Assembly (NCBI GenBank): GCA_030537355.1
Contig: JAUNNF010000003.1
Location: 124,001 to 188,000, forward strand
From: Coriobacteriia bacterium
GTDB lineage: Bacteria; Actinomycetota; Coriobacteriia; Coriobacteriales; Eggerthellaceae
Direction of reading: 5' to 3'
DNA length: 64,000 bases
Part shown: positions 3,884 through 36,388 of the stretch, piece by piece
Numbering within the stretch: the first letter of the stretch is position 1
How the letters are laid out: the number at the start of each line of letters is the position of its first letter
The notes under the pieces: model-generated
Seen by the model: the letters and a program-made list of their open reading frames with translations, nothing else
Databases searched by the model: none
Told to the model about the DNA's origin: nothing
Program-made: the position numbers and the translations under genes

Positions 3884-6709
3884 TTAAAATTCTCTTCTTT
3901 TACGTATTACTAAAGCGCAAGTACCTAAAGAACATAGTACTAAACAAGAAACAACCACGTATGTCATATCTCCAGTTTGTGCAGAAACATTTTCTGTGCT
4001 AGAAGCCTCTTGTGACTCCTCCTGTTTTTTCTTTTCGTCATCTGCACGCTGCTTTTCTACGTCTGACTTAAATTGATCTACAATATCTTGTATGACCTTT
4101 TTATTGTTCGCCAAGTTTAATTCATTATCGAAATTGGTGTTATTGATTTTATTTATAGCTTCTGCAGCAATAGCTTTCTCAGTGTCTGAATCATTTTTTT
4201 CACTTGACATAAGAGCCTCTACATCATTAGTATATTCATATTGAACAAATTTTCTAATTTCGGCAATCTTTTCAGATTTAAAACTTTCAAACTCTGGAGT
4301 TCTTGTTTCTTCAAGAGCTTTTTTGATTTCGTTTGTTGGAGTGTCAATAAGTTCTTTGTTCTCTTTTGGAGATTTTGCCAGATCATAAGTTAGACTATTT
4401 AACTCATCAATTTTATCATTAATAGTTTTTGTTGTTTCTGGAGAATCTGATGGATCTTTTAATCCCTCTAAAAGAGCTATACTTGCTTTTTTATTTGCTT
4501 CAAAAATATCGAGTCTATCATTATATACATTATTCTCTGCTTCTGTAACACTAGAAATAACTATTTGTTTATTAGCTAAAGGAGTCTTGTTCGTATCATA
4601 TTTAATATCATTAAGGTTTTTAATAGTATCGTTGATTATTTTTTCCGCATTAGCAGAATCACCTTCTTGTTTCATATTTTCAAGTTCTTGGACTTTTTCA
4701 GCTTTAAGATCTTCGAATTCTTGTGTACGTTGAACGTCTATATCTAACAAAGTCCTATCGAAAATGTTTTGTATTACTTCGTAATTTTCTTCAGGAGATA
4801 AACTAGCATTATATTCAAGTGCATTTAGCTCAATCTTTGCATTAGCGATAATAGTTTTAACAGCTGCACTATCACCCTCTTTATCAACATAATCTAATGC
4901 TTCAATTTGTTCTTTTTTGAAGTTCTCAAATGCTGTTTGATAACTCATAGTCGTAGCTTCTGCAGGAGTTGCACAAATAGCTTCATCATGATTGTCATCT
5001 CCAGCATATTTACTATAAATATAATATTTAGTATTGTCTTTTAAACTATTAAATGTAGTACCACTTTGCCATCCAGATGCTGGGGCAGCCTTTGTTTCAC
5101 TTATTGCATAAGAAGTATCTCCATAACCAGGACCAATAGGAGATATTGTAATATAGTCATAACTTATTGTTTGAATGAAAGGTGTAGCAATATTCTGCGA
5201 TGCTTTATCAATGGTAAAATCACATTGCGCAATTAAACCACTTACTGCCATAAATGCAGAATAATTTCCTGCATCAACTGGATGATCAACATATTCTCCA
5301 TCTTTTTGATACGTCAAAACGAGAGTATGTCCTGTGAGTTCTTCAAAATTTTGTTTATTTTTAATAGAGCAATCTAATGCTTCACCAGTATATATAGTAA
5401 TTTGGGGAGCTTGAATAGTAGCAGTTACAGTTGTTCCACATTTCATACATTGTGCAGTTATTTTATCGCCATCAACTTGGTATGTCAACAGATGTCCTGT
5501 ATGAGGGATAACAGTTTGTTCTTGTGTAATCTCGTTTTGAGCATCTGCATCGGAAAAATATTTACCACAATTTTTGCAATACCAATACTCTATATTTCCA
5601 TCTACTGTGCATGTAGCTTCTTTGCTAGAATGGTGTTCAAGATCATGACCTGTTTTTGGAAGAATAGTATCTTCTTCTTCTATAAATTGTGAAGCAATTG
5701 CATCAGTAAAGCACATACCACAGGTTAAACATTTCCAGTATTGAGTATTACCGTCAGTCGTACATGTTGGCTCTATTCTAGGATGCTCTTCTAAAACATG
5801 ATAGTTCCATCCAGATGCTTTAAATTCCACATTAGAGTCGCCCATAGTATATTTTGATCCAGGAGCATATGTTGTTTCTCCATCTGACCAAACAGTTGCA
5901 TGTTTGCCAACTGTACCATTACTTCCTGGCTGATAAAATGGAATATTTGGTAATGTAATTTGAGTGTTTGGATCAACGGTAATATCGCTAGGAGCTGTAC
6001 CTTCTGCTCCTTCACCACCTTTAAAGGATGCTGTAACGCCAGAGGATCCTTCGTGTTCTAATGCAAATGAATATATATTAATAGCATTTTCAGGATAAGT
6101 AACTGAATAAGTACCTGCTCCTACATTAGCGCTTAAAACAGGATAAATCTTACGTGTTTTAATTTTTCCTCCTTCTTCATATTTCTCTTCCACGGCCTCG
6201 CTTTCTAATAAAACGTGATTAATAATTTCCGTACCTGAAGAAGAAGTAACAACAATATTTCTGTCTGTAGCACTATTAGATGCAGTTCTAGCACAAATAT
6301 GAAGTATTCCATCTTCTTTTACATCCAATTCAAGTTTATTATCAGGAGTAGATTTGCCACCGGTTTTTAGACGTGTTGAAAACAATGTATGACTGCCTAT
6401 AACTCCAAAATTTGTATCATTCGCATCAACTTCCATATGAGGTTTTGATGCAGTGTCTGTAACGTTTAATATAAATGAACTAGCATCAATTGTTGTGGGT
6501 ACTTGTCCTTTGCCACATGTTTCAAACGTCATAGTATCTATAGTAGTTTTTTTAACATTAGCATCATCTGATACATTCAATTCCATAGCACCTACAATAC
6601 TACACGGAATTAAAACAGCAGCAATAGCAATACCTATTAATATATATACCAATGTGCGTTTAAGTGTATTTTGCCTCAGCTGAATTAAACTCGAATGTTG
6701 ACCTTTCAT
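3884..6709 (-). CDS. large wall-anchored stalk protein with Cys-knuckle modules
   Basis: A 941-residue exported protein starting at an ATG after GGAGGT. Residues about 18-45 are a membrane/signal segment. A beta-rich region follows (to about residue 270). Next come three related modules with two-cysteine knuckles (WKCLTCGMCFTDA, WYCKNCGKYFSDA, AQCMKCGTTV), a repeat type common in surface proteins of anaerobic Gram-positives. After a further beta region, about residues 590-890 are four or five helical repeats rich in Glu, Lys, Asn and Asp. The C-terminus is a sorting signal: AQTGD, a 20-residue hydrophobic stretch and RKRREF. Sortase anchoring to peptidoglycan is therefore likely. Binding target unknown; an adhesin-like spacer is the simplest reading. 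Confidence 0.8.
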   Translation of the reverse strand: MKGQHSSLIQLRQNTLKRTLVYILIGIAIAAVLIPCSIVGAMELNVSDDANVKKTTIDTMTFETCGKGQVPTTIDASSFILNVTDTASKPHMEVDANDTNFGVIGSHTLFSTRLKTGGKSTPDNKLELDVKEDGILHICARTASNSATDRNIVVTSSSGTEIINHVLLESEAVEEKYEEGGKIKTRKIYPVLSANVGAGTYSVTYPENAINIYSFALEHEGSSGVTASFKGGEGAEGTAPSDITVDPNTQITLPNIPFYQPGSNGTVGKHATVWSDGETTYAPGSKYTMGDSNVEFKASGWNYHVLEEHPRIEPTCTTDGNTQYWKCLTCGMCFTDAIASQFIEEEDTILPKTGHDLEHHSSKEATCTVDGNIEYWYCKNCGKYFSDADAQNEITQEQTVIPHTGHLLTYQVDGDKITAQCMKCGTTVTATIQAPQITIYTGEALDCSIKNKQNFEELTGHTLVLTYQKDGEYVDHPVDAGNYSAFMAVSGLIAQCDFTIDKASQNIATPFIQTISYDYITISPIGPGYGDTSYAISETKAAPASGWQSGTTFNSLKDNTKYYIYSKYAGDDNHDEAICATPAEATTMSYQTAFENFKKEQIEALDYVDKEGDSAAVKTIIANAKIELNALEYNASLSPEENYEVIQNIFDRTLLDIDVQRTQEFEDLKAEKVQELENMKQEGDSANAEKIINDTIKNLNDIKYDTNKTPLANKQIVISSVTEAENNVYNDRLDIFEANKKASIALLEGLKDPSDSPETTKTINDKIDELNSLTYDLAKSPKENKELIDTPTNEIKKALEETRTPEFESFKSEKIAEIRKFVQYEYTNDVEALMSSEKNDSDTEKAIAAEAINKINNTNFDNELNLANNKKVIQDIVDQFKSDVEKQRADDEKKKQEESQEASSTENVSAQTGDMTYVVVSCLVLCSLGTCALVIRKRREF

Positions 6710-7033: not shown

Positions 7034-7867
7034 ATGTATAGAACAAAACCACTAATTAAAATTACATCGCTATTATTATCATTATTTATTGTTGTTAGCC
7101 TTACTATTGGACTTACCCCTATCAAATCTTTTGCAAACAGTGGCAATTGCACAAAAGCAAGACAGTACAACCACAAACTTGATAGCTTTGAAGTTGCAGC
7201 TGAAATCGATCGTATTAATCTAACAGATGAAAAACATAATGAAAACCACAGCTATTCACATAGCGATAGAAGCTGGGATGATTGTTTTGGTCAGCCACAA
7301 GATACAAGTCCAGATATACATTTAATGAATGTTATTCATACTTATATAGATGGTACTGATTATCCATTCCAATATACTGTTACAGGTTTTTATGGTGACG
7401 AAAGTGGTTCTTGGGGCAGAAAAGCAAATGTTCAATTTTTCTATAATGACGAATCAAAGGTGCTAAGGATTTTATGCTTTGGTGGTGGATCTGAAGGTTT
7501 CAATACTTACAACTATCATAGCGGTTCTACAATATTGGAAGATGAACCAGAAATTGAAATTGGAGGTTGGAGGTTCGAAAAATTCCATATATCTCAACAA
7601 GTGAAAAAAATCGAAATTGATCCAAAACTACAAAAAATCATGAAAAGAAGTTTTCAAAATATGCCATATCTAGAAAGTGTAGATATTATAGGACAACGCT
7701 ATGACAAATCTAATCTTAACGAAATTCGTAGTTATGCGTTTAGAGATTGCGGTAAAAAAAATAACAACTTCTATCATGCTGTAAAAATGAATATACTCAA
7801 AGTTAAAGAACATCATTCTGTGGATATGGATAAGGATTGGGCCGAAAATACTAATCGTGAAGAATAG
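7034..7867 (+). CDS. secreted BspA-like (LRR_5-type) surface protein, short form
   Basis: A 277-residue exported protein with AAAGGAG before the ATG. Residues 1-35 are a signal peptide nearly the same as in the gene at 2532. The rest (about 85-250) matches each of two modules in the 845-residue protein at 11558: a KANVQFFYN strand, then a leucine-rich BspA-like piece (QKIMKRSFQNMPYLESVDI). Unlike that paralogue it lacks Ig-like modules and ends abruptly in a charged tail, with no sorting motif. It may be a natural short form or a paralogue that lost its 3' part when repeat copy 2 arrived: the repeat's hairpin starts only 26 bases after the stop. Ligand unknown. BspA-type repeats often bind host matrix proteins. 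Confidence 0.75.
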   Translation: MYRTKPLIKITSLLLSLFIVVSLTIGLTPIKSFANSGNCTKARQYNHKLDSFEVAAEIDRINLTDEKHNENHSYSHSDRSWDDCFGQPQDTSPDIHLMNVIHTYIDGTDYPFQYTVTGFYGDESGSWGRKANVQFFYNDESKVLRILCFGGGSEGFNTYNYHSGSTILEDEPEIEIGGWRFEKFHISQQVKKIEIDPKLQKIMKRSFQNMPYLESVDIIGQRYDKSNLNEIRSYAFRDCGKKNNNFYHAVKMNILKVKEHHSVDMDKDWAENTNREE

Positions 7868-8194: not shown

Positions 8195-10240
8195 TTAATC
8201 TTTTGTAGCACTTAAAACTATCTTTTCAAATCTTGATTGTCTACCTAAAATATTAAAAGTAGAAGACTCCCATTCTGTTGTAGGATTACATATTCTACTA
8301 AAAGTAGCATTATCCAAAAGCAAACTAAAAACATGGTTGTGCTCGTCCAAATTATAACAATCACAATTAACATCTACATATTTTGACTGCCATGCTCCAT
8401 CTTGAACTTGAAAATACCAATCTTTTTCACATCCACTGTAATATGTAATACCCGTGAATTTAATATAAAGGCCTTCATATGCACCAGCATTTTTTATTTC
8501 TTGACCTCCTCTACTGAAAACACTTAATTGAGGTCCAGACCAATCAGGAAAATCTCCTCCTTCAGAATACAGTTCAACATCTTTGAATTGAAAAGTTGTA
8601 TTTATAGTTGCATCTTTAACAAGTTTTCCATGGTCAGGAACACCACTGCAAGAAATATATTTGTGATTATTATCTGGAACAGCGTAAAGTACCTTTGACG
8701 TTTCTGTACCTGGTTCTTGAAAAGTGATAGTACCTATGTCTTCGTTAGTAGCATATTTACCATATGTAACTATCGTGTTATTTTTAACCGTAGTTGAGCT
8801 TATAGGAGAGTCTGATGATGCTGGATTTGGTGTGGAATATATATTGCCGTGCTGATTTTGAAAATCGACATTTATAGTATTTTTAGTTATTGTAACTTGA
8901 GAACATGAAATATTTTTACCATTAAGAACAAAAGTTCCACCCCATCCTTGAGCAGGAATTGATCGAATGGTAGCAAGTAATTCATCTGTAAGAAGTAACG
9001 AATAACAATACCCATTAGTTTTTAAATCATAGAAAGTTCTACTTGATTCACCAGGATCATCAGTTATATTTGCAAAAGGCTGTTCAATTGACCAATGTCC
9101 TTCTTTTAGCTCTAAGTAATAATATTCTTGAGGGTTAATTGGAGCTAAATAAAAATTGAGATAATCTCCACCATGTGCCGAAGCAAGTTCAGGAGCTCCA
9201 TCAGTTAACACATAGGCATCTCCCTGTCCCCAATCTGGAGCAAGTCTAGGTGGATTGTATGTGGCCAATATAGTCTCTTCAGGACCTACTTGTTTTGCAA
9301 ATGTTGATGTAATTTTTGTAGCTTCAGCAATTTTTCCATCAACTGGGACTCCTAAGAATAATGCAAATTTGAAGTTAGCGTTTGGAACAGCATACAATAC
9401 TTGAGGATTCTCGCTACCAAATGTAATCTGTCCTATATTAGTATCTTCTGAATAAATACCTGCAGTAACAGGAGCACCTGTAGGAACATTTACACTTGTA
9501 ATAGGCGTATCTGATTCTGTAGGAGTAGGCGTATTGTAGAAACTGCCATTAGGACTTTCTAAAGTAACTGGAATCATCTCTGGAGCTGATGGTTCAACTG
9601 TAAAAGTAACATCAACAACTTCACTACCAATTAGAGAAACAGCAGTTTCTTTTGTTGTACCCTTTACTCCAAAATTAACAACTCCTTCAGAAATAGCTTT
9701 ACATACTGAAACTTTGCCACCAGCAGATTTGTCGTAATACAAAGTACCATCCACACTCACCTGCCAAGAACAATCATCCTCAACCTTAATATCTTTGCAA
9801 AAATCTAATGAGATGTCTTTAAGTTGCACTTTTTCAGCAACTTTAGTTAATGCACCGTCTTCAATTGTGATTTCTCCAGAGTCCTTATCAACAAGAGCTT
9901 GAACTTTTGGAGTAGATTTAGCAATCTCATTGCCTTCTGATGCGATTGCTTTATGAGTATTAATAACAAGTACTGACGAAAGCAACAATACTGAAACCGT
10001 AAACAAAACTACAGAAGCTATTAGTGAAATGTTGCTCTGTAATATACTCTTAACATGCTTGCCACTTACTGTCGTAAGAGATGACTTCCTTTGAAAAACT
10101 AATAAAACAATACCAACCAAAGCGAATAATACGGCAATAGCTGCTCCTAGAAAATCTCCTGTTTGCCCAAGTGAACTTGCTGCGTCTCCACTTGGATTTG
10201 CCTTATCAGCAAATTCAATAATTGTATGTAAAGCTTCCAT
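8195..10240 (-). CDS. membrane-anchored surface protein with N-terminal QTGD segment
   Basis: The start is the ATG at 10240, which follows GAGGAGG; the frame is open 45 bases further upstream. The 681-residue protein begins with an unusual pair of membrane segments. Near residue 26 is SLGQTGD followed by a 22-residue helix and RK, which looks like a C-terminal sorting signal but sits at the N-terminus. A basic loop follows, then a second helix (about residues 72-92) and a long outside part. That part has two related beta-rich modules, each with a GSFYNTPTPTESD-like or GNIYSTPNPASSD-like start and a VLYAVP strand. Expected topology is N-terminus out, loop in, bulk out. Ligand unknown. The gene at 14070 shares the N-terminal layout. 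Confidence 0.75.
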   Translation of the reverse strand: MEALHTIIEFADKANPSGDAASSLGQTGDFLGAAIAVLFALVGIVLLVFQRKSSLTTVSGKHVKSILQSNISLIASVVLFTVSVLLLSSVLVINTHKAIASEGNEIAKSTPKVQALVDKDSGEITIEDGALTKVAEKVQLKDISLDFCKDIKVEDDCSWQVSVDGTLYYDKSAGGKVSVCKAISEGVVNFGVKGTTKETAVSLIGSEVVDVTFTVEPSAPEMIPVTLESPNGSFYNTPTPTESDTPITSVNVPTGAPVTAGIYSEDTNIGQITFGSENPQVLYAVPNANFKFALFLGVPVDGKIAEATKITSTFAKQVGPEETILATYNPPRLAPDWGQGDAYVLTDGAPELASAHGGDYLNFYLAPINPQEYYYLELKEGHWSIEQPFANITDDPGESSRTFYDLKTNGYCYSLLLTDELLATIRSIPAQGWGGTFVLNGKNISCSQVTITKNTINVDFQNQHGNIYSTPNPASSDSPISSTTVKNNTIVTYGKYATNEDIGTITFQEPGTETSKVLYAVPDNNHKYISCSGVPDHGKLVKDATINTTFQFKDVELYSEGGDFPDWSGPQLSVFSRGGQEIKNAGAYEGLYIKFTGITYYSGCEKDWYFQVQDGAWQSKYVDVNCDCYNLDEHNHVFSLLLDNATFSRICNPTTEWESSTFNILGRQSRFEKIVLSATKD

Positions 10241-11462: not shown

Positions 11463-11557
11463 ATTTTAATTAAAAATTTAAGTACGTTTGATTTTTTTTA
11501 CATACATATTATAATTACATTATAGTCATACATCACAGATACTTTAGGGGGTTGATC

Positions 11558-14089
11558 ATGATAGTTAAAAATAAAATATTCGTTTTTGTTTGTAGTTTAA
11601 TTGCTGTCCTAATGTTTGCTTTATGTGTTATCAATATTCAACCTGCTTATGCAGAGCAAAGTAATGGTGCAATGGAGCCAAGAGAAGCTGAAGAAGAACA
11701 CCATTGTTGGACTTCTTGGGAAGATGATTGTATTGACGATTGCTTAAATCATTTAGTTTATAAGAAAAAAGTTTATTTATATCATGGTGATAGACATGGT
11801 ATAAGTCCTGTAACACGTATTGTTGATGGTTTTGATGAAGTTAGATTGGATGACAACGGAGGTAGTGGCACTTTTGCATTTGATATAAAGGGTTATTTTG
11901 GTAATTGCAGTGATTGTCTGTATCGAGAGCCTAACGTACAGTTTTTTTATAACACCCAAACAAAAGAAATGTTGATTTTAGCTTTTGGACCTTCAAAGCA
12001 TGATTACGATATTATTAGCTACAATCTATTTGCTTCGACTATTTTTCAGGATGAATTAGAATTTGATAATGGTAAGTTATGTATAGCAAATGAAGTGACA
12101 ACACTTAGGTTGGGCACAAAAATTAGAGAAATTGGTACTAGAAGCTTTAATAGTTTACTTATGCTTAATAACGTAGATATAATAAATCAAAATTATTCAC
12201 AGAGTAGATTACAAAAAATCTGTTTTGACGCATTTAATTGGGCGAGTACTGGCTCATCAATTCCCGGTAGAGGTATTGACATGCCAGTTTTACATGCAGG
12301 TGATAGTGAATCTTATATAAAAAATAAATCAGATTGGGGCCGATGTATTGATTTTAATTTTAATGGAGTTCTTTATAGGGGAAAACATTGGGATAAACCC
12401 CTAACTGGAAAATATTTAACAGCTGTGGAGAATTTTGAGAAGACATTATGCGATAAAATTTTACCTGAGGAAGAAGCTGATAAAGATTCTAAGGACGTAT
12501 ATCATGTTGTAGGTGGTTTTAATAATATAAAAGTTCCAATCGGAGATAAAGAAACAACAATTTCGTACGATATTAGAGGATATTTTGGTTACAATCCTAC
12601 AACCCTGACTCGTGAGCCTCACATTCAATTTTTTTACAATACAAGTTCAAAAGAATTAAATGTTGTTGGTTTTAACGATGAGCTTATGATGACAACGTAT
12701 AAATACAACGTATTATTTACTAGTAAAACAATTTTTAATGACACTTTGAAATTCAAGAGTGGTTTTAAGTATATTATTTCAGATAACGCAAAACAAATTT
12801 TTGTTGATACAAAAGTTGACACATTAGGGGATCTTGCATTTCAACATTTCAAACATTTAGAACTTGTAGATATTAAAAATAAGGAGTATAACAAAGCAGC
12901 ATTTTGCATTATTGATTTTCATGCATTTTATGATTGTTCAGAGTTTGTAGACAACGGATTGGATGTTGAGATATTACATGCTAGCAAAGTCGACGAAAAC
13001 TATTATTTGAACAAAGATAAATTATGGCATAGTGACACTAAAGTGTTTTTAAATGGTAAAACAAACGTTAATCCAGTACAAGGATTAACTTATAAATATG
13101 AAGAGTCTCAAGTGGGCATTCCTAACGTAGAAGGGGTAATCCTATCAAATGCAGAAGACCCAAATTATAATACAGCAACAATTACTAACCGAGGTGCTGA
13201 AGGTACAAATGCTGGCATATACAAAGTTAAAGCTTCCCTTAAGACAGGACACTGCTGGGAAGATTATTCCACAAATGATAGATTTTATGAATTTAGAATT
13301 GAAGGACGAAAATTTGACATAAAACCAATAAGGCTAGTTTATAATTCTACATTTCAGGTAGCATACAAAGCAAATCTTTTCTGCAAATTTGAAAATGTTC
13401 CATGCGAAATCGGCTACCTCGATCCACTAATTACTCAAAGAGGTGTTGAAGGTCTTAGTGTTGGCAAATATAAAGTTCGTGCAGTCCCAAACCCAGCATT
13501 TACTTGGGAAGACGGAAGCGGAATCGGAAAAGTTGTAGAATTCCATATTACTATAACCGACAAAACAAGTATAAAAGAACCTGCACAAGGATTAGTATAC
13601 AATGGCAAATCACAACTAGGAGTGGAATCAAATGTAGGCTTTGCCTTAACTAATGAACCATTAGAAGGTTACAGTAAAGCTAATATAACTGAAAATGGTG
13701 CAGAAGCCTTACATGCAGGTAAATATGCAATAAGAGCTACACTTTTTCAAGGTTGGAGCTGGGAAGACGGCACTAGAGATGACAAAATTTTAAAATTTGA
13801 AATAGCTAAGGCACACCCTAGATTTAATTGCCCAAAAGATCCTATAAAACTTAATGTTTACGATTGCTATTGTGCTGATATAGAAACTGTAGATTTGAGT
13901 ACAGATATTAAAGTAGAAAAACATGGTGATTGTGGATTGGTAATAACAAATCAAGATGATAGTGAGCCAGGACACTTTAAATTAAACATGTCTACTTACG
14001 CACCAGGCACTTACACAATCATTTTAAAAATTGATGCTACAAATGACACAGATGGAGCAGAAGGTTCATTTACAATTGTTGTACATTAA
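11558..14089 (+). CDS. large secreted protein: BspA-like modules plus Ig-like repeats
   Basis: The start is the ATG at 11558, six bases after AGGGGG; an in-frame TTG upstream overlaps that site. The 843-residue protein has a signal peptide ending near AYAEQ. Two homologous modules follow (about residues 75-260 and 290-500), each with a REPNVQFFYN or REPHIQFFYN strand and a leucine-rich BspA-like segment. Three Ig-like repeats come next (about 515-610, 610-680, 685-755; motifs such as NGAEALHAGKYAI), then a final beta module with APGTYTI. It appears to be the full-length parent of the shorter proteins at 2532 and 7034. No sorting motif is present. Its 3' end overlaps the convergent gene at 14070 by 20 bases. 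Likely role: adhesion to host or matrix. Confidence 0.8.
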   Translation: MIVKNKIFVFVCSLIAVLMFALCVINIQPAYAEQSNGAMEPREAEEEHHCWTSWEDDCIDDCLNHLVYKKKVYLYHGDRHGISPVTRIVDGFDEVRLDDNGGSGTFAFDIKGYFGNCSDCLYREPNVQFFYNTQTKEMLILAFGPSKHDYDIISYNLFASTIFQDELEFDNGKLCIANEVTTLRLGTKIREIGTRSFNSLLMLNNVDIINQNYSQSRLQKICFDAFNWASTGSSIPGRGIDMPVLHAGDSESYIKNKSDWGRCIDFNFNGVLYRGKHWDKPLTGKYLTAVENFEKTLCDKILPEEEADKDSKDVYHVVGGFNNIKVPIGDKETTISYDIRGYFGYNPTTLTREPHIQFFYNTSSKELNVVGFNDELMMTTYKYNVLFTSKTIFNDTLKFKSGFKYIISDNAKQIFVDTKVDTLGDLAFQHFKHLELVDIKNKEYNKAAFCIIDFHAFYDCSEFVDNGLDVEILHASKVDENYYLNKDKLWHSDTKVFLNGKTNVNPVQGLTYKYEESQVGIPNVEGVILSNAEDPNYNTATITNRGAEGTNAGIYKVKASLKTGHCWEDYSTNDRFYEFRIEGRKFDIKPIRLVYNSTFQVAYKANLFCKFENVPCEIGYLDPLITQRGVEGLSVGKYKVRAVPNPAFTWEDGSGIGKVVEFHITITDKTSIKEPAQGLVYNGKSQLGVESNVGFALTNEPLEGYSKANITENGAEALHAGKYAIRATLFQGWSWEDGTRDDKILKFEIAKAHPRFNCPKDPIKLNVYDCYCADIETVDLSTDIKVEKHGDCGLVITNQDDSEPGHFKLNMSTYAPGTYTIILKIDATNDTDGAEGSFTIVVH

Positions 14090-15833
14090 TAGAAACTGGC
14101 TTTAAGCTTGACATACTCAAAGTATACGACTGAACGCCAGCACAATAACAATTATCTTTGCATTTGTTAACGATATATTCTGTATTGATATATGAAATTA
14201 TGCCGCGTCTTTTATAGCAGTCATCTTTTATTTGCTTGTTACGTTCATTATAGTGTTCAACAGTTGCTGGGAAAAATATGGCTGTTGGATTAACCATGTC
14301 ATAGAATGTGCGATTTCCATTTCTGGCCCTGTATCTATCTTGATCGTGCCCGTGATGCGGGACTGTCATAAGCTCACTGTGTAGGATATCAGGCGTATAA
14401 CGCTTGATAACTTGGTTGATGTTGTAATCTCCAATATCTCCTGTATAGAGTAAGGACTTACCCGTAGCCTCGCTTGTAATTTTAACAAGTGCAGATTCCA
14501 AGTTGCCATCAGCTTTACGTTTGGCGGCTTCAGTTTTAACTTCCTCGTCATCTGACTCCTCGCCTATTACCGTAGGACACATATCACTATAGGTTAAAAG
14601 TACCTCAAATTTAGCGCCTGGGAATTGAAATACCTGACCTGCGAAAGCTTTGTAGACTTTTGTATTAGGGAACTCTTGCATATCTTCTTTGAACCGGACG
14701 TAAGCCTCTTCATTGTCTTTTAAGTGGACATAAGCCTCATCAGTCTCGCCAAAGTTATAGCAGAAGCTCTGGATGTCAAGATTTGGAAATTTTTCTTTGT
14801 TTTTGCAGTAGTCATGCAGACCATAGGTATGATCACCGTGGCAATGAGAAAAATACCACATTCTGATGATTATGTGATTTGGGTCAGGAGCTTGATTTTT
14901 TAGACAGTCATACAAGTCCTGAAATTGAACCCCAGAGAAACTCTGAATTGCGCAATTGCTGTCTAGGATGATGAAACTGCCATCTATAAGCCTGTATACA
15001 CAACACTCCGCATCTCCTTTTGAAACGCGGATTTTCATAATGGATGCTGTCTCCTCGCCTGATGGATTGTATGACTCTGTTTCTTTAGGAGGCAATGGAA
15101 CATTTTTTGCTGTGATCATTCTTATTTCGTTGTTATCGTGAGTAAAGTATATGTATACAAAATCCTCACCTTTGGTGTAAGTGCTAAATAAATTCTCGTT
15201 TAGGTTGTTGGAAGTATATAGGCTATAACCATCCTTTTCGAGTTCGGCACATCTAATTTTATAGTTTGTGGCGTCAGAGTTCTCGAAAGTTGTTTGGGTG
15301 TATCCCCTACCAATATCAGTTACAGCCTTCTGTTTGTCAGTGGTATGAAGCGTGATATCAAATTCAATTTTAGCGACTGATTTATTGAATAGGAGTTTAG
15401 CTTTCTCGTAGTTGAAACCATCAAAGCTTATACTTAATGTGTTGGTTTTATTTAGCTCTATTTTATCGTTGTTTAAAACTTGGTCATTGACCTTGAGTTG
15501 GTATTTAAAATCTTTAAAGTTGCCATCTAAAATATCAAGCTTATAAGAATTTAGAGTTCCTTCAGAATCTATATTGAGCTGTCCATCAATTACTTTGTAA
15601 TCATTGTCTGAAACTTGAACTTGAATATTTTGATTGTCAGCATATGCGAAGGTTGTTAGACAACATAGAAGAGCAAAGCTAGACAATACAAACATGGACT
15701 TTCTTAGCTTTTTAAAAAATATCGCAGCGATAATAAAGCAAACAAGCAAAATAGGAAATACAAAATCTCCAGTTTGTGCCAACTGCGTTGGCAAGCTCTG
15801 AAATTCGATATATGTTAAACTTTGGATATCCAT
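14070..15833 (-). CDS. exported metallo-beta-lactamase-fold protein with N-terminal QTGD segment
   Basis: A 587-residue protein after an AAGG site. Residues 19-45 read AQTGD, a hydrophobic helix and KKLRK, like a C-terminal sorting signal placed at the N-terminus. A second helix follows, with a signal-peptidase-like end at FAYA. A beta-rich linker precedes a metallo-beta-lactamase fold (about residues 260-570) with the metal site HCHGDH, a later YTGDIGD and HHGHDQD. That order matches ComEC-type C-terminal domains and related hydrolases. Acting outside the cell, it might cut nucleic acids, phosphodiesters or wall phospholipids; which of these is not decided by sequence. It overlaps the convergent surface gene by 20 bases. 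Confidence 0.75.
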   Translation of the reverse strand: MDIQSLTYIEFQSLPTQLAQTGDFVFPILLVCFIIAAIFFKKLRKSMFVLSSFALLCCLTTFAYADNQNIQVQVSDNDYKVIDGQLNIDSEGTLNSYKLDILDGNFKDFKYQLKVNDQVLNNDKIELNKTNTLSISFDGFNYEKAKLLFNKSVAKIEFDITLHTTDKQKAVTDIGRGYTQTTFENSDATNYKIRCAELEKDGYSLYTSNNLNENLFSTYTKGEDFVYIYFTHDNNEIRMITAKNVPLPPKETESYNPSGEETASIMKIRVSKGDAECCVYRLIDGSFIILDSNCAIQSFSGVQFQDLYDCLKNQAPDPNHIIIRMWYFSHCHGDHTYGLHDYCKNKEKFPNLDIQSFCYNFGETDEAYVHLKDNEEAYVRFKEDMQEFPNTKVYKAFAGQVFQFPGAKFEVLLTYSDMCPTVIGEESDDEEVKTEAAKRKADGNLESALVKITSEATGKSLLYTGDIGDYNINQVIKRYTPDILHSELMTVPHHGHDQDRYRARNGNRTFYDMVNPTAIFFPATVEHYNERNKQIKDDCYKRRGIISYINTEYIVNKCKDNCYCAGVQSYTLSMSSLKPVSINVQQL

Positions 15834-15903: not shown

Positions 15904-16211
15904 ATGTCAGAAATAGCAAAAAAGTCTAAACGCATTTTATCAGTAGACGTACTTCGAGGAATCACGATTGTATTTATGATTCTAATTGACGATCCAGCCG
16001 GGAAAAAATTCGAATTCATGTGTCACCAGTGTGAATTAGGCTCACACTCGTCCTTCTTGCATAGATTATCGACATCAAGGGTCACATAAAGTGGACAACA
16101 TGCTGCGGAGTTACAGGCCTAGCTTCTGTATTGACCACAGGGCTTTTTGTGCTCGCCTGGTATTTGGTATTGTATGTGCTAGACAAAAAGAAAATTTATA
16201 TTAGACTATAA
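15904..16211 (+). pseudogene. remnant of a duplicated acyltransferase gene
   Basis: The first ~120 bases match the start of the intact gene at 16797, with the same ribosome-site region. Then come about 35 bases matching 17680-17716 (ATCGACATCAAGGG) and about 110 bases matching its 3' end, including the stop at 16211. The middle 1.5 kb or more is missing. A hairpin (AGTGTGA, TCACACT) lies at the main deletion joint near 16030. The short open frame of 61 residues here should not be taken as a gene. Confidence 0.85.
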
Positions 16212-16796: not shown

Positions 16797-17948
16797 ATGT
16801 CAGAGATAGCACAAAAATCAAAACGCATTTTATCAGTGGACGTACTTCGAGGAATCACGATTGTATTTATGATTCTAATTGATGATCCAGCAGGGAAAAA
16901 ATTCGAATTTATGTGCCACCCAATATGGATGGGACTTACTCTCGCCGATTTTGTATTCCCTACTTTTATCACTTTAGTTGGTGTGTCCATGTACTTCTCG
17001 CTCAAGAAATATGACTTTAAACCTTGCAAACAGTCCATATTTAGAGTTGTCAGGCGTTTCATTTTGCTCATGCTGTTTGGCTGGGTAGTTGTTATGGTTG
17101 CGCACGGATTTTCAGCCGCATTTGCAGGAAAGGATTGGGTGCTTACTGCTTTTGATTTTGCTAATATGCGAATTTTAGGTGTTATCCCCCGTATCGCAAT
17201 ATGTTATTTTATTGGTGCATTAATTATTTTACTCGTCCGTAATAAAAAAGTTATCATTGGCATTATCGCTGCTATTTTAATTGGATATTGCATACTGCTT
17301 ATTGCAGGCAATGGGTTTGATTTTAACGACACTAATAATATTTTAAGTACAATTGATCAAAGCGTGCTCGGACGCGAGCATATGTACAAAATGGCCATTG
17401 ACGAGCAAGGCACTGCCACGATCTTCTTTGATCCAGAAGGTCTTGCGTCTACAATCCCTTGTGTAGCACAGGTTTTGCTAGGCTTTTTGATTGGCGGAAT
17501 TATATGCGACAAGAAAAAAGACAATAATGCAAAAGTAATGTACATGTTTATTGTTGGTTTCAGCTTACTAGCATTAGGCTTTATTTTCAGCCCTGCAGTT
17601 CCTATTTTCAAAAAAGCTTGGACAAGCACATTTGTATTAGTTACAGTGGGTAGTGATGCTTGCTTACTTGCCCTTCTTACTTGGATTATCGATATCAAAG
17701 GACACAAGAAGTGGACTACATTCTTTAGAGTTTATGGATCAAATGCCATAATTTCTTTTGCTGCAATGGATATCATTTGGGTAATTTTAGCAGGATTAAA
17801 ACTAACCAAGCTTGCATACAATTTCTTCTTGCCAATATGTTGCGGAGTTACAGGATTGGCTTCTGTGTTAACCACAGGACTTTTTGTACTAGCCTGGTAT
17901 GTTGTATTGTACTTGCTAGACAAAAAGAAGATTTACATTAGGTTGTAA
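16797..17948 (+). CDS. heparan-glucosaminide N-acetyltransferase-like membrane acyltransferase
   Basis: A 383-residue integral membrane protein with about ten hydrophobic segments, preceded by AAGGAG. The start SKRILSVDVLRGITI and the following HPIWMGLTLADFVFP are typical of the HGSNAT/DUF5009 (NagX) family, which moves acetyl groups across a membrane onto sugars; a His in this region carries the acetyl group in the human enzyme. The natural acceptor here is probably a cell-wall or surface sugar, but this is not shown by the sequence. A decayed copy lies at 15904. The convergent nitroreductase-like gene ends 9 bases away. Confidence 0.85.
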   Translation: MSEIAQKSKRILSVDVLRGITIVFMILIDDPAGKKFEFMCHPIWMGLTLADFVFPTFITLVGVSMYFSLKKYDFKPCKQSIFRVVRRFILLMLFGWVVVMVAHGFSAAFAGKDWVLTAFDFANMRILGVIPRIAICYFIGALIILLVRNKKVIIGIIAAILIGYCILLIAGNGFDFNDTNNILSTIDQSVLGREHMYKMAIDEQGTATIFFDPEGLASTIPCVAQVLLGFLIGGIICDKKKDNNAKVMYMFIVGFSLLALGFIFSPAVPIFKKAWTSTFVLVTVGSDACLLALLTWIIDIKGHKKWTTFFRVYGSNAIISFAAMDIIWVILAGLKLTKLAYNFFLPICCGVTGLASVLTTGLFVLAWYVVLYLLDKKKIYIRL

Positions 17949-20424: not shown

Positions 20425-22389
20425 ATGAAAATTAAAGTTTGTTTAATAGGGCTCTTCGTAGTTGTTTGTGCGCTTAGTTTTGTGCCGCGTGATGTTTATG
20501 CATCAAGCCCGCTAGTGGAAGCAATACTACAGCAAACAGACAATAAAGAGCGTCATATCGATACAGAACCTAAAAGCTTTCCTGCAAAATTTGACTTACG
20601 CTCTTGTGACCTAGACGGAAATGGAGAGCTTAAAAACTATGTTACAAGCACAAAGCTACAAAACACTTGGGGTAACTGTTGGGCTCATGGTGGTATTGCT
20701 GCAGCAGAGATAAGCATTCTCGCAAAGCAGCGTCAAAACTCAGTTACAGTTGATGCTACTGGGAAAAAGCGTGACAGTCTGGATTTGAGCGAGCACCATC
20801 TCTCGTGGTTTAACTATGCCCCAATGACAGCAGCAGAGACCCCGACACATGCTGGTGAAGGTGCCTATAGCTTTAGAGAAGAAGAAGCAAAAGCCAAAGG
20901 CCTAGAATATTGGTGGTCCAAGCGTTTAAACTCTGGCGGAATTGGAATGTCTGTTACCAGCGCCTTTTCTCGTGGAGATGGACCTGTTCGCGAACCTGAC
21001 TGGAACAATCCCAATTTAACTCCACAACAAAAGCAGCTACTATACAAAGGTAAAAACGAATACAAGGCTAAAGATGTCAGAGGCTTTGACGTTTATTCAG
21101 AAGCAGATGATTGGGCAATTGATGATGATCAGCGCAGCAAGAAAGATTACGAACTTAACGAAGCATACATACTGCCAGATGCAGCTACATTCTAAAATGA
21201 CAAATATGATCAAGAACACGCTGAATATGTCACAAAACTCATGAAACAGCAACTCATGGATGGACGTGGTTTATTTATTACTTACAACTGTGACAACTAT
21301 ACAACAGACCAGAAAGAGACCATGAAGCCTCGCTATATTAATGTTGATACATGGTGCCAATATGCATATCAGCCTGACTTCCCGTCGCACTGCGTTTGCG
21401 TTGTTGGCTGGGATGATACCATCCAGCAAGACAAGTTTTTGAAAAAGGGCGCCGACAAAGAAGGCAAAATGGTTGACATACCACTACCGCCAATGCCAGG
21501 TGCTTGGATTGTTAAAAACAGTTGGGGTGCTGCTGATAGCATTGGCCAAGGCATCACATACGAGCCATGGGGAGATAAAGATAGTGGTTATTTCTACCTG
21601 AGTTACTATGATCAATCGCTTGTTGACGAGGCAGCTTTTGACTTTAATATCAACTTTGACAAAAATAAAATTACTCATCAGTTAAATTACATGTCAAGCG
21701 AGAAACTTCACGGTGTTGAACTTGATAATCTAGTAACTACAGCAAACATCTTTTGCGCTGATACAGATGAGGATTTAGTTGAAGTTAGTGGCATGACAAA
21801 CACCGAAAACGTTGACGTAAACTACAAGGTTTATCTACTTGACAGTAAAGATCAACAAATAGACACTGGGAAGCTTCTGTGTAGCGTTGACCACACATCC
21901 ACATACAAAGGTTTTCATCGTGTGAGCTTAGGTGGTGCATATCATTTGAATAAAGGACAGTACTTTGCTGTTACCACAACACAGAAGGTACATAACGGAG
22001 GCCCATACATTATGTCTTGCTGGTATGACTGTAATCATGATGGTTATGACAAAAAAATGACAATTGACGACTACTTCTGCAAGGCTATTGTAAACCCAGG
22101 TGAAAGTTTTGTCTACACCGCATCTGATGGAAAATGGACTGATTTTGCAAGTCTAAAAAGTGAACTTGAAAAAACTGAAAAAGGTAAATACTACACTTAT
22201 GACAATTTCCCAATCAAAGCTTATGCCACACCAGCGGCTCCATCTCCTGATCAAACAAATAAGCTTGCTCCAACTGGAGATACGCTTCCTTTTATTGAAT
22301 TGATAATTGTAGCTTTGGTAAGTGGATTAATTGTTTTGAAAATATCACATCTTAAGTATTGCAAAAACAAAAAATCTGTTGTACAATAA
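20425..22389 (+). pseudogene. C1 (papain-like) surface peptidase interrupted by one in-frame stop
   Basis: One reading frame of 654 codons is interrupted only by TAA at 21193-21195 (codon 257). Before the stop are the signal peptide and the catalytic Cys (GNCWAHG, C85). After it are the His (PSHCVCVVGWDD, codon 322), the Asn (VKNSWG, codon 365), a lectin-like beta domain found in bacterial C1 peptidases, and a sorting signal (LAPTGD, hydrophobic stretch, KNKK). The dyad is therefore split over the stop. Translation restarting at ATG 21241 would yield a piece without the nucleophile. Apart from this codon the gene looks intact, so the mutation is recent, or a read error, or there is read-through. 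The terminal codons overlap the promoter of the RNA at 22391. Confidence 0.85.
22359..22387 (+). promoter_or_regulatory. promoter of the orphan short RNA (repeat copy 4)
   Basis: TTGCAA and TACAAT are 17 bases apart. The -10 box overlaps the last sense codon and the stop of the peptidase gene. Spacing and the TGTTGTACAATA context match the promoter at copy 1. Confidence 0.7.
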
Positions 22390-33511: not shown

Positions 33512-36388
33512 ATGAAAACTAAGCATGTATATAGATTTATTGTTGTAGGAATACTTATTCTATTAATAGCTATTCCAGCTTTTGCTAAAGCAAAAGAAAG
33601 CAATGGGACTAAACGAGCGGTTCCGTTTTCAGAAGTTGAGGTGAATGAGGGTTTTATGCATGATTATATGAAGCTTGTTATATGTAAAGTTATTCCTACT
33701 GCTATAGAAAATGTCGAAAAAGATGGTGGTGGTATCAAAAATATCAAAAACTGTGCTAAGTGGCATAGAGGAGAAATTGAACGTCCAAAACAAGATGGAG
33801 CAATATATGTAGATTCAGACGTCCATAAAGTATTAGAGTCTATGTGCATGGCTCTTGATACTCCAACAGGTGGAGATGCGGAGATTGAAGCTGCACAAGC
33901 AACTATTAAAGCTAAACTTGAAGAATGGATACCTTACTATATTGATGCACCTGAAAAAGAAGACGGAACAAACCGTTATAAAGGTTATTTTGATACTTAT
34001 TGGTCTATATACACCAATGATCAAGGCGAAGAATATCAAAAGTATAGCAACGTTGATAACCACGAATTATATTGTCAGGGCCACTTTATGGAGGCAGCTG
34101 TTGCTCATTATCGCTACACAAGTCATGAAGGTACGCCTGATACTCGTCTTTTAAATGTTGCTATAAACAGTGCGGATCATATTGTAAAAACATTTGGCAC
34201 TGATCAAGGACAACGTAAACAAATTCCAGGACATCAAGAAATTGAGCTTGCTCTGATGAAGCTCGCAAAATTATGTCAAGAAATTGGTGGCGAGTATTCA
34301 GTTAAAGCACAAGGTTATATTAACAAAGCTGCCTATTTCTTAGAAGAACGCGGAAACTATGAAGGACGCACAGCTGATCTTACACCAGATAGACGTATAT
34401 ATTATCAAGATCACCTACCAGTAGCCAATCAAACTGAAGCTTTTGGACATGCAGTTCGTGCACAATATATGTATACTGGCATGGCAGAGCTCGCTTCAAT
34501 TGATCCAAATTATGCAACTAAATATGACAATGCGCTAAAAGCACTTTGGGATAATGTAACTCATAAAAAACAATATATAACAGGTGGTATTGGTGATAAA
34601 AGTAACAGTAACGAAGGTTTTGCCGGTAATTACTTTTTACCAAACTATACATCTTATTGTGAGACATGTGCTGGCGTTGCTAATATGTTGTGGAATCGTT
34701 CTATGTCAACCTTATATGACGGTTCAAAATATGCAGATCAAATAGAAACAGACTTATACAATAATGTCCTTGGTTGTGTAAATTTTGAAGGAAATAAATT
34801 TTACTACCAAAATCATATTTGCGATAAAGACGCTTTTGACCGCAGCTCTTGGTTTGGTACAGCATGTTGTCCACCTAATTTTACTCGTACAATTTTGCAA
34901 GTTGGAGGTTATATATACAATACAAGCGACGATGAAATATTTGTGAACCAATACATTTCAAATAATGCTAAATTTGATGTAGGCGGTAATAAAGTAAACA
35001 TAAATATGAAAAGTACTTTTCCTTATAAGTCAAACGGTGAGATAACAATTACTCCTGAAAAGTCAGGAAAATTTAACGTAAACTTACGAAAACCATCATG
35101 GGCAGACAGCTACAACATTAAAGTAAATGGAAGCAAAGTCGACCCACAAGAGAAAGACGGTTATCTTATTATTAATCATGATTTTGGTGTTAATGGCACA
35201 AAAATTGAATTTGAATTTGATATGCCACTTAAATACGTAAACACCGATAGCAACATTGAAACAAATGAAGGCCTTGTAGCTCTTCGTCATGGACCTCTGC
35301 TATATTGTAGCGAAGGCTGCGATAATGATCCTAATTTTGATTACAACAAAGCAATTATCGATAGAGGCACCAATTACAATTTTGAACCAGTTACTCCATT
35401 AGATGGCATGCCAGACCCTTATGGAGTTTGCTCGGTTTCTGTTTTAAAACACGGAGGAAAATTAATTAATGGCTCGGGAACTAGTGATATTACCTGGAAA
35501 CTTATTCCTTATTATGCACGTTGTAATAGGCAACTAGGATCAATGCGCGTTTTTATGCATGATAGTAACTATCCAATTAAAACACACAGAAGAGCAACTG
35601 CCTCAACCTCGTATACTTGGCCTGCTGATACTGTACAAGCCTTAAATGATGGAATTTATGATAAAGATATACGTTGGACAAGTTATAAGGAAGGAGATTA
35701 CCTCCGTAACCCAAATGTACAATATGACTTTAAAGAGCCTGTAAAATTTAAGGGATTTCGCATTTGGTGGTATGATGATAAAGGTGGCGTACAACTTCCA
35801 GATGACATAAGCTTTGTTGTATATAATAAAACAACAGGAGTAACCGAAGAAGTAACTAGCGAGAACTTCGCCATTTCTAATGATAATAAATACACAGTCT
35901 ACCAATTCCCTAAAACATACGAAGGAAATCAAATCAGAATGACAATCAAAAATGAAAAAAGTGCTCATGCTGCAGGAATTGTGCAATGGGAGCTCATTGA
36001 CGATGATACATTAGAAGGTATCACAGTAAGCAAAATGCCTAATAAAACACAATACGTAGTAGGAGAAAGTTTTGACCCAACTGGAATGGTGGTAGAAGCA
36101 AGTTATCCAAATTATGCAAATAAAGCAAAAAAAGAAATAACAAACTATACTTATAGCCCGAGCAAATTTGAGCATGCAGGAGACCAAGAAGTTACAATTT
36201 CATATACAGAAGGAGAAACAACTAAGACAACAAGCATACCAGTAAAAGTTAGCGAAGCACAAGATCAAACTAACTCAGATCTACCTATTACAGGTGATCA
36301 TATATTATTGATGTTGCTGATTATAGCTTTAATTGCTATCACAATTAAACTTGCATTTTCTTCAAAAAAGATACACTTAAGCAGATAA
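33512..36388 (+). CDS. wall-anchored GH127 beta-L-arabinofuranosidase
   Basis: A 958-residue secreted enzyme with GAGAGG before the ATG. After the signal peptide comes a GH127 catalytic barrel. The metal/catalytic site of this family is seen: E384 and C386 in CETCAG and C452-C453 in TACCPPN, matching Glu338, Cys340, Cys417 and Cys418 of the founding enzyme. A beta domain resembling a discoidin fold (about residues 700-820) and one Ig-like domain (about 830-910) follow. The tail is LPITGD, a hydrophobic stretch and SKKIHLSR, a sortase signal. It should release L-arabinose from plant glycoproteins or arabinans at the cell surface. No uptake system for arabinose adjoins it. Confidence 0.88.
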   Translation: MKTKHVYRFIVVGILILLIAIPAFAKAKESNGTKRAVPFSEVEVNEGFMHDYMKLVICKVIPTAIENVEKDGGGIKNIKNCAKWHRGEIERPKQDGAIYVDSDVHKVLESMCMALDTPTGGDAEIEAAQATIKAKLEEWIPYYIDAPEKEDGTNRYKGYFDTYWSIYTNDQGEEYQKYSNVDNHELYCQGHFMEAAVAHYRYTSHEGTPDTRLLNVAINSADHIVKTFGTDQGQRKQIPGHQEIELALMKLAKLCQEIGGEYSVKAQGYINKAAYFLEERGNYEGRTADLTPDRRIYYQDHLPVANQTEAFGHAVRAQYMYTGMAELASIDPNYATKYDNALKALWDNVTHKKQYITGGIGDKSNSNEGFAGNYFLPNYTSYCETCAGVANMLWNRSMSTLYDGSKYADQIETDLYNNVLGCVNFEGNKFYYQNHICDKDAFDRSSWFGTACCPPNFTRTILQVGGYIYNTSDDEIFVNQYISNNAKFDVGGNKVNINMKSTFPYKSNGEITITPEKSGKFNVNLRKPSWADSYNIKVNGSKVDPQEKDGYLIINHDFGVNGTKIEFEFDMPLKYVNTDSNIETNEGLVALRHGPLLYCSEGCDNDPNFDYNKAIIDRGTNYNFEPVTPLDGMPDPYGVCSVSVLKHGGKLINGSGTSDITWKLIPYYARCNRQLGSMRVFMHDSNYPIKTHRRATASTSYTWPADTVQALNDGIYDKDIRWTSYKEGDYLRNPNVQYDFKEPVKFKGFRIWWYDDKGGVQLPDDISFVVYNKTTGVTEEVTSENFAISNDNKYTVYQFPKTYEGNQIRMTIKNEKSAHAAGIVQWELIDDDTLEGITVSKMPNKTQYVVGESFDPTGMVVEASYPNYANKAKKEITNYTYSPSKFEHAGDQEVTISYTEGETTKTTSIPVKVSEAQDQTNSDLPITGDHILLMLLIIALIAITIKLAFSSKKIHLSR

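What the first reader, a model, noticed from the sequence alone, without database searches (positions are those of the whole stretch)
14070..15833. Sorting-signal-like QTGD segments placed at the N-terminus
Two exported proteins (8195-10240 and 14070-15833) begin with QTGD, a hydrophobic helix and a basic cluster, followed by a second membrane segment and the whole outside part. QTGD-helix-basic is the form of a C-terminal sorting signal, as in the genuine one at the end of the 941-residue protein. With the N-terminus outside, a sortase could cut T-G and join only the ~20-residue N-terminal piece to the wall while the protein stays in the membrane; or the piece may hold the protein near sortase. 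I know of no described role.
Basis: partly seen in the sequence, partly recalled or inferred. Interest (0 to 1): 0.7.

Follow-up and report, generated by a model that had tools for sequence, protein, structure and literature searches.

The report
Sortase signals at protein N-termini
In a little-known bacterial lineage (Coriobacteriia), a family of at least 25 secreted enzymes and surface proteins carries the wall-attachment signal at the front instead of the back, as a few streptococcal proteases do, followed by a second export signal; it matters because it offers a large, diverse set for finding out what a front-end sorting signal does.

Summary
Window proteins A (8195-10240) and B (14070-15833) belong to a homologous family: 9 members in this genome, 13 in a second Coriobacteriia genus, 3 in a third genus of another family. 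They share an acidic N-tail with an amphipathic core, xT[GSF]D (T and D in 25/25, G in 21/25), TM1, a basic loop, a signal-peptide-like TM2 with AxA-type sites in nearly all, and (nearly all) a ~100-residue beta-rich domain. Unrelated passengers follow (GDPD, lipase, GH84, MBL hydrolase, repeat proteins). A profile built from this genome's C-terminal sorting signals scores all 20 N-terminal segments tested above every background ORF. Charges predict the N-terminus outside. Eight members here read to the end have no C-terminal TGD anchor. 'No described role' is wrong: streptococcal IgA1 protease, ZmpB, ZmpC and ZmpD carry N-terminal LPXTG. What differs here: no upstream signal peptide, a conserved N-tail, xTGD, diverse passengers. 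Most likely sortase cuts T-G, fixing the short tail to the wall, and signal peptidase frees the passenger. Sortase cutting and the passenger's fate are inferred. Verdict: new variant of a known kind.

The parts
14070..15833 (-). Protein B, 587 aa: N-terminal sorting-signal hairpin + beta domain + MBL-fold (ComEC-like) hydrolase
   Evidence: ORF; C-terminal half resembles ComEC (E=1.8e-5; E=0.004); HCHGDH metal motif in sequence
15777..15833 (-). B N-tail, residues 1-19; no K/R, net charge -3 through the motif
15765..15776 (-). B QTGD motif, residues 20-23
15714..15764 (-). B TM1, residues 24-40, followed by KKLRK
15639..15695 (-). B TM2 / signal-peptide-like segment ending AYA|DN, residues 47-65
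15339..15638 (-). B beta-rich domain just after the AxA site, about residues 66-165
   Evidence: alignments; AF2 of a homologue, pLDDT 62
8195..10240 (-). Protein A, 681 aa: N-terminal sorting-signal hairpin + beta domain + passenger of unknown function
   Evidence: ORF; ATG preceded by GGAGG
10154..10165 (-). A QTGD motif, residues 26-29
9941..10030 (-). A TM2 / signal-peptide-like segment ending AIA|SE, about residues 71-100
9587..9940 (-). A beta-rich domain, about residues 101-218
3968..3979 (-). Genuine C-terminal QTGD signal of the 941-residue protein (comparison)
22273..22281 (+). TGD of a C-terminal signal (LAPTGD) on the ORF 21241-22389 (comparison)
36290..36298 (+). TGD of a C-terminal signal (LPITGD) of a 1032-aa open frame (comparison)

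Best explanation
A and B carry a shared N-terminal export-and-sorting module. The short acidic N-tail is pushed out first, so TM1 lies N-out and puts the xTGD motif outside just above the membrane, as in a C-terminal sorting signal; the basic loop stays inside; TM2 works as a second, cleavable signal peptide that exports the passenger. A sortase (two of the class B type were found in the genome) cuts T-G and joins the roughly 20-45 residue N-tail to the wall; signal peptidase cuts after AxA, separating the passenger from the membrane hairpin. The passenger is then released or held non-covalently near the surface. Shown by sequence: homology, motif conservation, charge pattern, AxA sites, no C-terminal TGD anchor in the G000 members read to the end. 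Inferred: topology in the cell, both cuts, wall linkage of the tail, fate of the passenger.
For: 25 proteins in 3 genera and 2 families share the layout. T 20/20, G 17/20, D 20/20 and Q before T 12/20 in the aligned set; 6 of 7 members not used in profile A4 keep TGD. A profile of 11 C-terminal signals scores all 20 N-terminal segments above every background ORF (lowest 5.9, best background 4.2 bits). Pfam Gram_pos_anchor hits two members weakly. G102 N-terminal variants QTFD and TSD also occur in its C-terminal signals (QTFD, KTSD). N-tails hold 0-2 K/R, net charge negative in 19 of 20; 2-6 K/R follow TM1. AxA-type sites 42-80 residues after the motif. Two class B-like sortases. Precedent with cleavage 56 residues downstream (PMC9637739).
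Against: No experiment. Four of 25 have TSD or TFD rather than TGD. What linking a 20-45 residue tail to the wall would achieve is unclear, and after both cuts nothing covalent holds the passenger. The AxA sites were found by pattern, not by a trained predictor; one member (L041) has only GFA or AYG, and L030 has a proline close after the site. The C-terminal-signal profile partly rewards any TM with a basic flank. The class B sortases found need not be the ones that read xTGD.
Confidence: 0.6

Rival explanations
1. Recruitment only: the xTGD hairpin docks to sortase or to its membrane site but is rarely cut; it serves as a targeting address so that passengers are exported where sortase and wall synthesis sit, then freed by signal peptidase.
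For: The module would work without wall linkage; a minority of members (4/25) have TSD or TFD; the tail is too short to be a useful display.
Against: Motif variants parallel those of true C-terminal signals, suggesting the same catalytic reading; T and D are invariant although the rest is only about 20-30% identical.
Confidence: 0.2
2. Membrane display: TM2 is not cut, the passenger stays on a two-helix anchor, and sortase merely trims or ties the tail.
For: TM2 is strongly hydrophobic in all members scanned.
Against: AxA-type sites at the expected place in nearly all members; IgA1 protease is described as cleaved downstream of its N-terminal LPXTG (PMC9637739).
Confidence: 0.15
3. The conserved N-tail itself is the point: wall-linked by sortase, it binds the family's common beta domain (own or neighbour's) by strand or helix contact and so retains the released passenger at the wall.
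For: The N-tail core (roughly L-x-T-x-I-x-F-V) recurs across two families and is amphipathic beyond shuffles; the beta domain co-occurs with it in nearly all members; weak fold matches include donor-strand pilins and appendages.
Against: AF2 of tail+hairpin+domain failed (pLDDT 40); fold matches are not significant (best E 0.06); a conserved tail may only serve N-tail translocation; L041 has a tail but no clear beta domain.
Confidence: 0.12
4. Chance, or a fused upstream C-terminal signal, with no function.
For: The form QTGD-helix-basic is short.
Against: 25 homologous cases with conserved T and D, a recurring N-tail and the same order of parts.
Confidence: 0.01

Closest known systems
N-terminal LPXTG of streptococcal/Gemella IgA1 protease (ZmpA) and ZmpB/C/D (M26); Bender and Weiser 2006 as cited in PMC7695701 and PMC9637739; PMC7939560; PMC2225412; PMC2705793
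   Same: Sortase-type motif near the N-terminus, further transmembrane segments beside it, whole catalytic part outside, processing some tens of residues downstream of the motif (56 there; predicted 42-80 here).
   Different: Here no conventional signal peptide precedes the motif; motif is xTGD; N-tail is short and conserved; passengers are GDPD, lipase, GH84, MBL and repeat proteins, not G5+M26; the sortases found are class B-like, not sortase A.
C-terminal cell wall sorting signal (PF00746 Gram_pos_anchor)
   Same: Motif, hydrophobic stretch, basic cluster; a profile of this genome's C-terminal signals recognises the N-terminal ones.
   Different: Position at the N-terminus and followed by a second export signal.
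Coriobacteriia protein L092 (genus g9, same family as the window genome)
   Same: LPETGD-TM-basic loop-TM-AIA hairpin.
   Different: Has a conventional signal peptide before the motif, Zmp-like, and its frame ends 17 residues after the AxA.

Membership tests
M26 IgA1 protease / Zmp N-terminal LPXTG proteins | LPXTG-type motif near the N-terminus with transmembrane segments after it | tested here: met
   xT[GSF]D within residues 18-49, two hydrophobic segments after it
M26 IgA1 protease / Zmp N-terminal LPXTG proteins | conventional signal peptide upstream of the motif | tested here: not met
   no hydrophobic segment before the motif in the 20 members scanned; only the related L092 has one
M26 IgA1 protease / Zmp N-terminal LPXTG proteins | G5 domain and M26 peptidase region | tested here: not met
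   no such hit for the members scanned with Pfam
M26 IgA1 protease / Zmp N-terminal LPXTG proteins | cleavage about 56 residues downstream of the motif | tested here: inconclusive
   AxA-type sites 42-80 residues downstream, pattern only
Sortase substrates in general | motif + hydrophobic segment + basic cluster of the genome's own sorting signals | tested here: met
   20/20 above background with a profile of 11 C-terminal signals
Sortase substrates in general | signal at the C-terminus | tested here: not met
   all at the N-terminus; eight G000 members read to the end have no C-terminal TGD anchor
Sortase substrates in general | cut between T and G and linked to the wall | not testable with these tools
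   needs wall proteomics or a sortase mutant
N-out membrane hairpin | acidic or neutral N-tail, basic loop after TM1 | tested here: met
   net charge -1 to -7 in 19 of 20 N-tails, 0 in one; 2-6 K/R after TM1
Donor-strand beta-domain proteins (pilins, Ena, TasA-like) | jelly-roll/Ig fold completed by a neighbour's strand | tested here: inconclusive
   AF2 pLDDT 62 with 4 sequences; Foldseek best E 0.06

The most novel reading that the evidence does not exclude
Sortase fixes a conserved amphipathic N-tail peptide in the wall, and that peptide non-covalently captures the signal-peptidase-released passengers through their shared beta domain: a split wall-display system in which one protein makes both the hook and the cargo.
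Probability: 0.1. Interest if true: 0.85.

Novelty: new variant of a known kind. Interest (0 to 1): 0.57.

Why it matters
N-terminal sortase motifs are known to me and in the papers found only from a few giant streptococcal and Gemella proteases, and why a protein would carry a sorting signal at the wrong end is unsettled. A lineage with about ten such proteins per genome, of many enzyme types and with a conserved tail, shows that the arrangement is a module that can be joined to many passengers, and gives small enzymes (GDPD, lipase) on which the processing can be tested.

Tried and rejected
Chance origin (rejected by conservation). N-terminus inside (rejected on charges). A fused upstream gene (rejected: same order in 25 homologues). 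AF2 of tail+hairpin+domain: pLDDT 40, unusable; AF2 of the beta domain alone 62, fold matches not significant. PDB profile search: no significant match. Orthologues of B's enzyme part: none in 299 genomes of the order other than the window's own, so conservation was tested on the module. Sampled phylum: only the window genome. Genome-contig scan: only two loci, both of G102. First profile of C-terminal signals held one false member; rebuilt without it. The original 2006 paper on the pneumococcal N-terminal LPNTG is not held; its content is taken from citing papers.

Full report
What was checked. B (14070-15833, minus) starts MDIQSLTYIEFQSLPTQLAQTGDF and A (8195-10240, minus) starts MEALHTIIEFADKANPSGDAASSLGQTGDF. 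A's ATG follows a clear GGAGG; B's has only a weak AAGG, but B's N-terminal segment has homologues, so the start is credible.

More than chance. In the whole genome (G000, 1.51 Mb, 19 contigs) the DNA for QTGD occurs 13 times: 4 encode this N-terminal layout, 6 lie in C-terminal sorting signals, the others are internal or in a very short frame. Profiles of the N-terminal segment found further members with PITGD, PSTGD and ASTGD and one with ASTSD, giving 9 in G000. G102, another genus of the same family, has at least 13; its matching contigs are JAUNQF01, 'Coriobacteriia bacterium isolate S38M_St_18'. G365, another family of the same order, has three. A sample of 396 genomes of the phylum gave no other, and most of the 397 genomes of the order have none.

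Anatomy. Reading from the front: an N-tail of 17-45 residues whose first part is an amphipathic core, roughly L-x-T-x-I-x-F-V (helical moment above all 2000 shuffles, strand moment weaker; the register was chosen by eye); often a Gly-, Pro- or Ser-rich linker; xTGD; TM1; a basic loop, short or about 40 residues; TM2 ending in an AxA-type site; a beta-rich domain of about 100 residues in nearly all; then the passenger. In 20 aligned members T and D never vary, G varies in three; over all 25 read, 21 have TGD, three TSD, one TFD. Passengers: GDPD, lipase class 3, DUF6273, CarboxypepD_reg and GH84 by Pfam; MBL-fold in B; others are long repeat proteins. The 790-aa protein L076 looks GH99-like by eye only; Pfam gave nothing.

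Why a sorting signal. A profile built only from 11 C-terminal signals of G000 scores all 20 N-terminal segments above the best of the window's other open frames. The variants QTFD and TSD seen at N-termini in G102 also occur in its C-terminal signals. Eight G000 members read to the end (A, B, the GDPD protein, and L074-L078) have no C-terminal TGD anchor. Two class B-like sortases are encoded; the first scores below NCBIfam's cut-off, the second above.

Topology and processing. N-tails carry 0-2 K/R with net charge negative in 19 of 20 and zero in one, and 2-6 K/R follow TM1: N-out by the positive-inside rule (established knowledge). AxA-type sites lie 42-80 residues after the motif, so TM2 is best read as a second signal peptide.

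Known relatives. Papers describe N-terminal LPXTG in IgA1 protease, ZmpB, ZmpC and ZmpD, with localisation by sortase and cleavage 56 residues downstream (PMC9637739, PMC7939560; [quoted passage not shown] L092 from a related genus has a conventional signal peptide before LPETGD and a similar hairpin, a bridging form. The family here differs by lacking that signal peptide and by its conserved tail. I did not fetch streptococcal sequences for a direct comparison.

How it works. Most likely sortase cuts T-G and links the tail to the wall while signal peptidase frees the passenger. Neither cut is shown. What the wall-linked tail does is open; its conservation suggests a function beyond being a leader.

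Noticed in passing
G102 (JAUNQF01): L058, L060, L062, L072: This Coriobacteriia MAG appears to read TGA as Trp: TGA interrupts N-tails (PTPGG-TGA-TPTQTGD) and stands at the beta domain's conserved Trp in L060; no RF2 hit over the cut-off, only an RF1-like gene with an in-frame TGA, whereas G000, G003, G005 and G017 have RF2. The genome is 75% complete, so absence of RF2 is not proof.
   Followed up: partly
window 15904-16019 (+): A truncated copy of the first ~40 codons of the gene at 16797-17948 (acyltransferase-like membrane protein) lies just upstream of protein B.
   Followed up: no
window 7034-7867 and 11552-14089 (+): Two exported proteins with conventional signal peptides appear to share a paralogous domain (...NVQFFYN...) and flank the N-terminal-signal genes on the other strand.
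   Followed up: no
L053 (G023, genus g24): Open frame at a contig end with PRTGD-TM-KRRR-TM-AYA followed by a long exported part: possibly another N-terminal sorting signal of a different family.
   Followed up: partly
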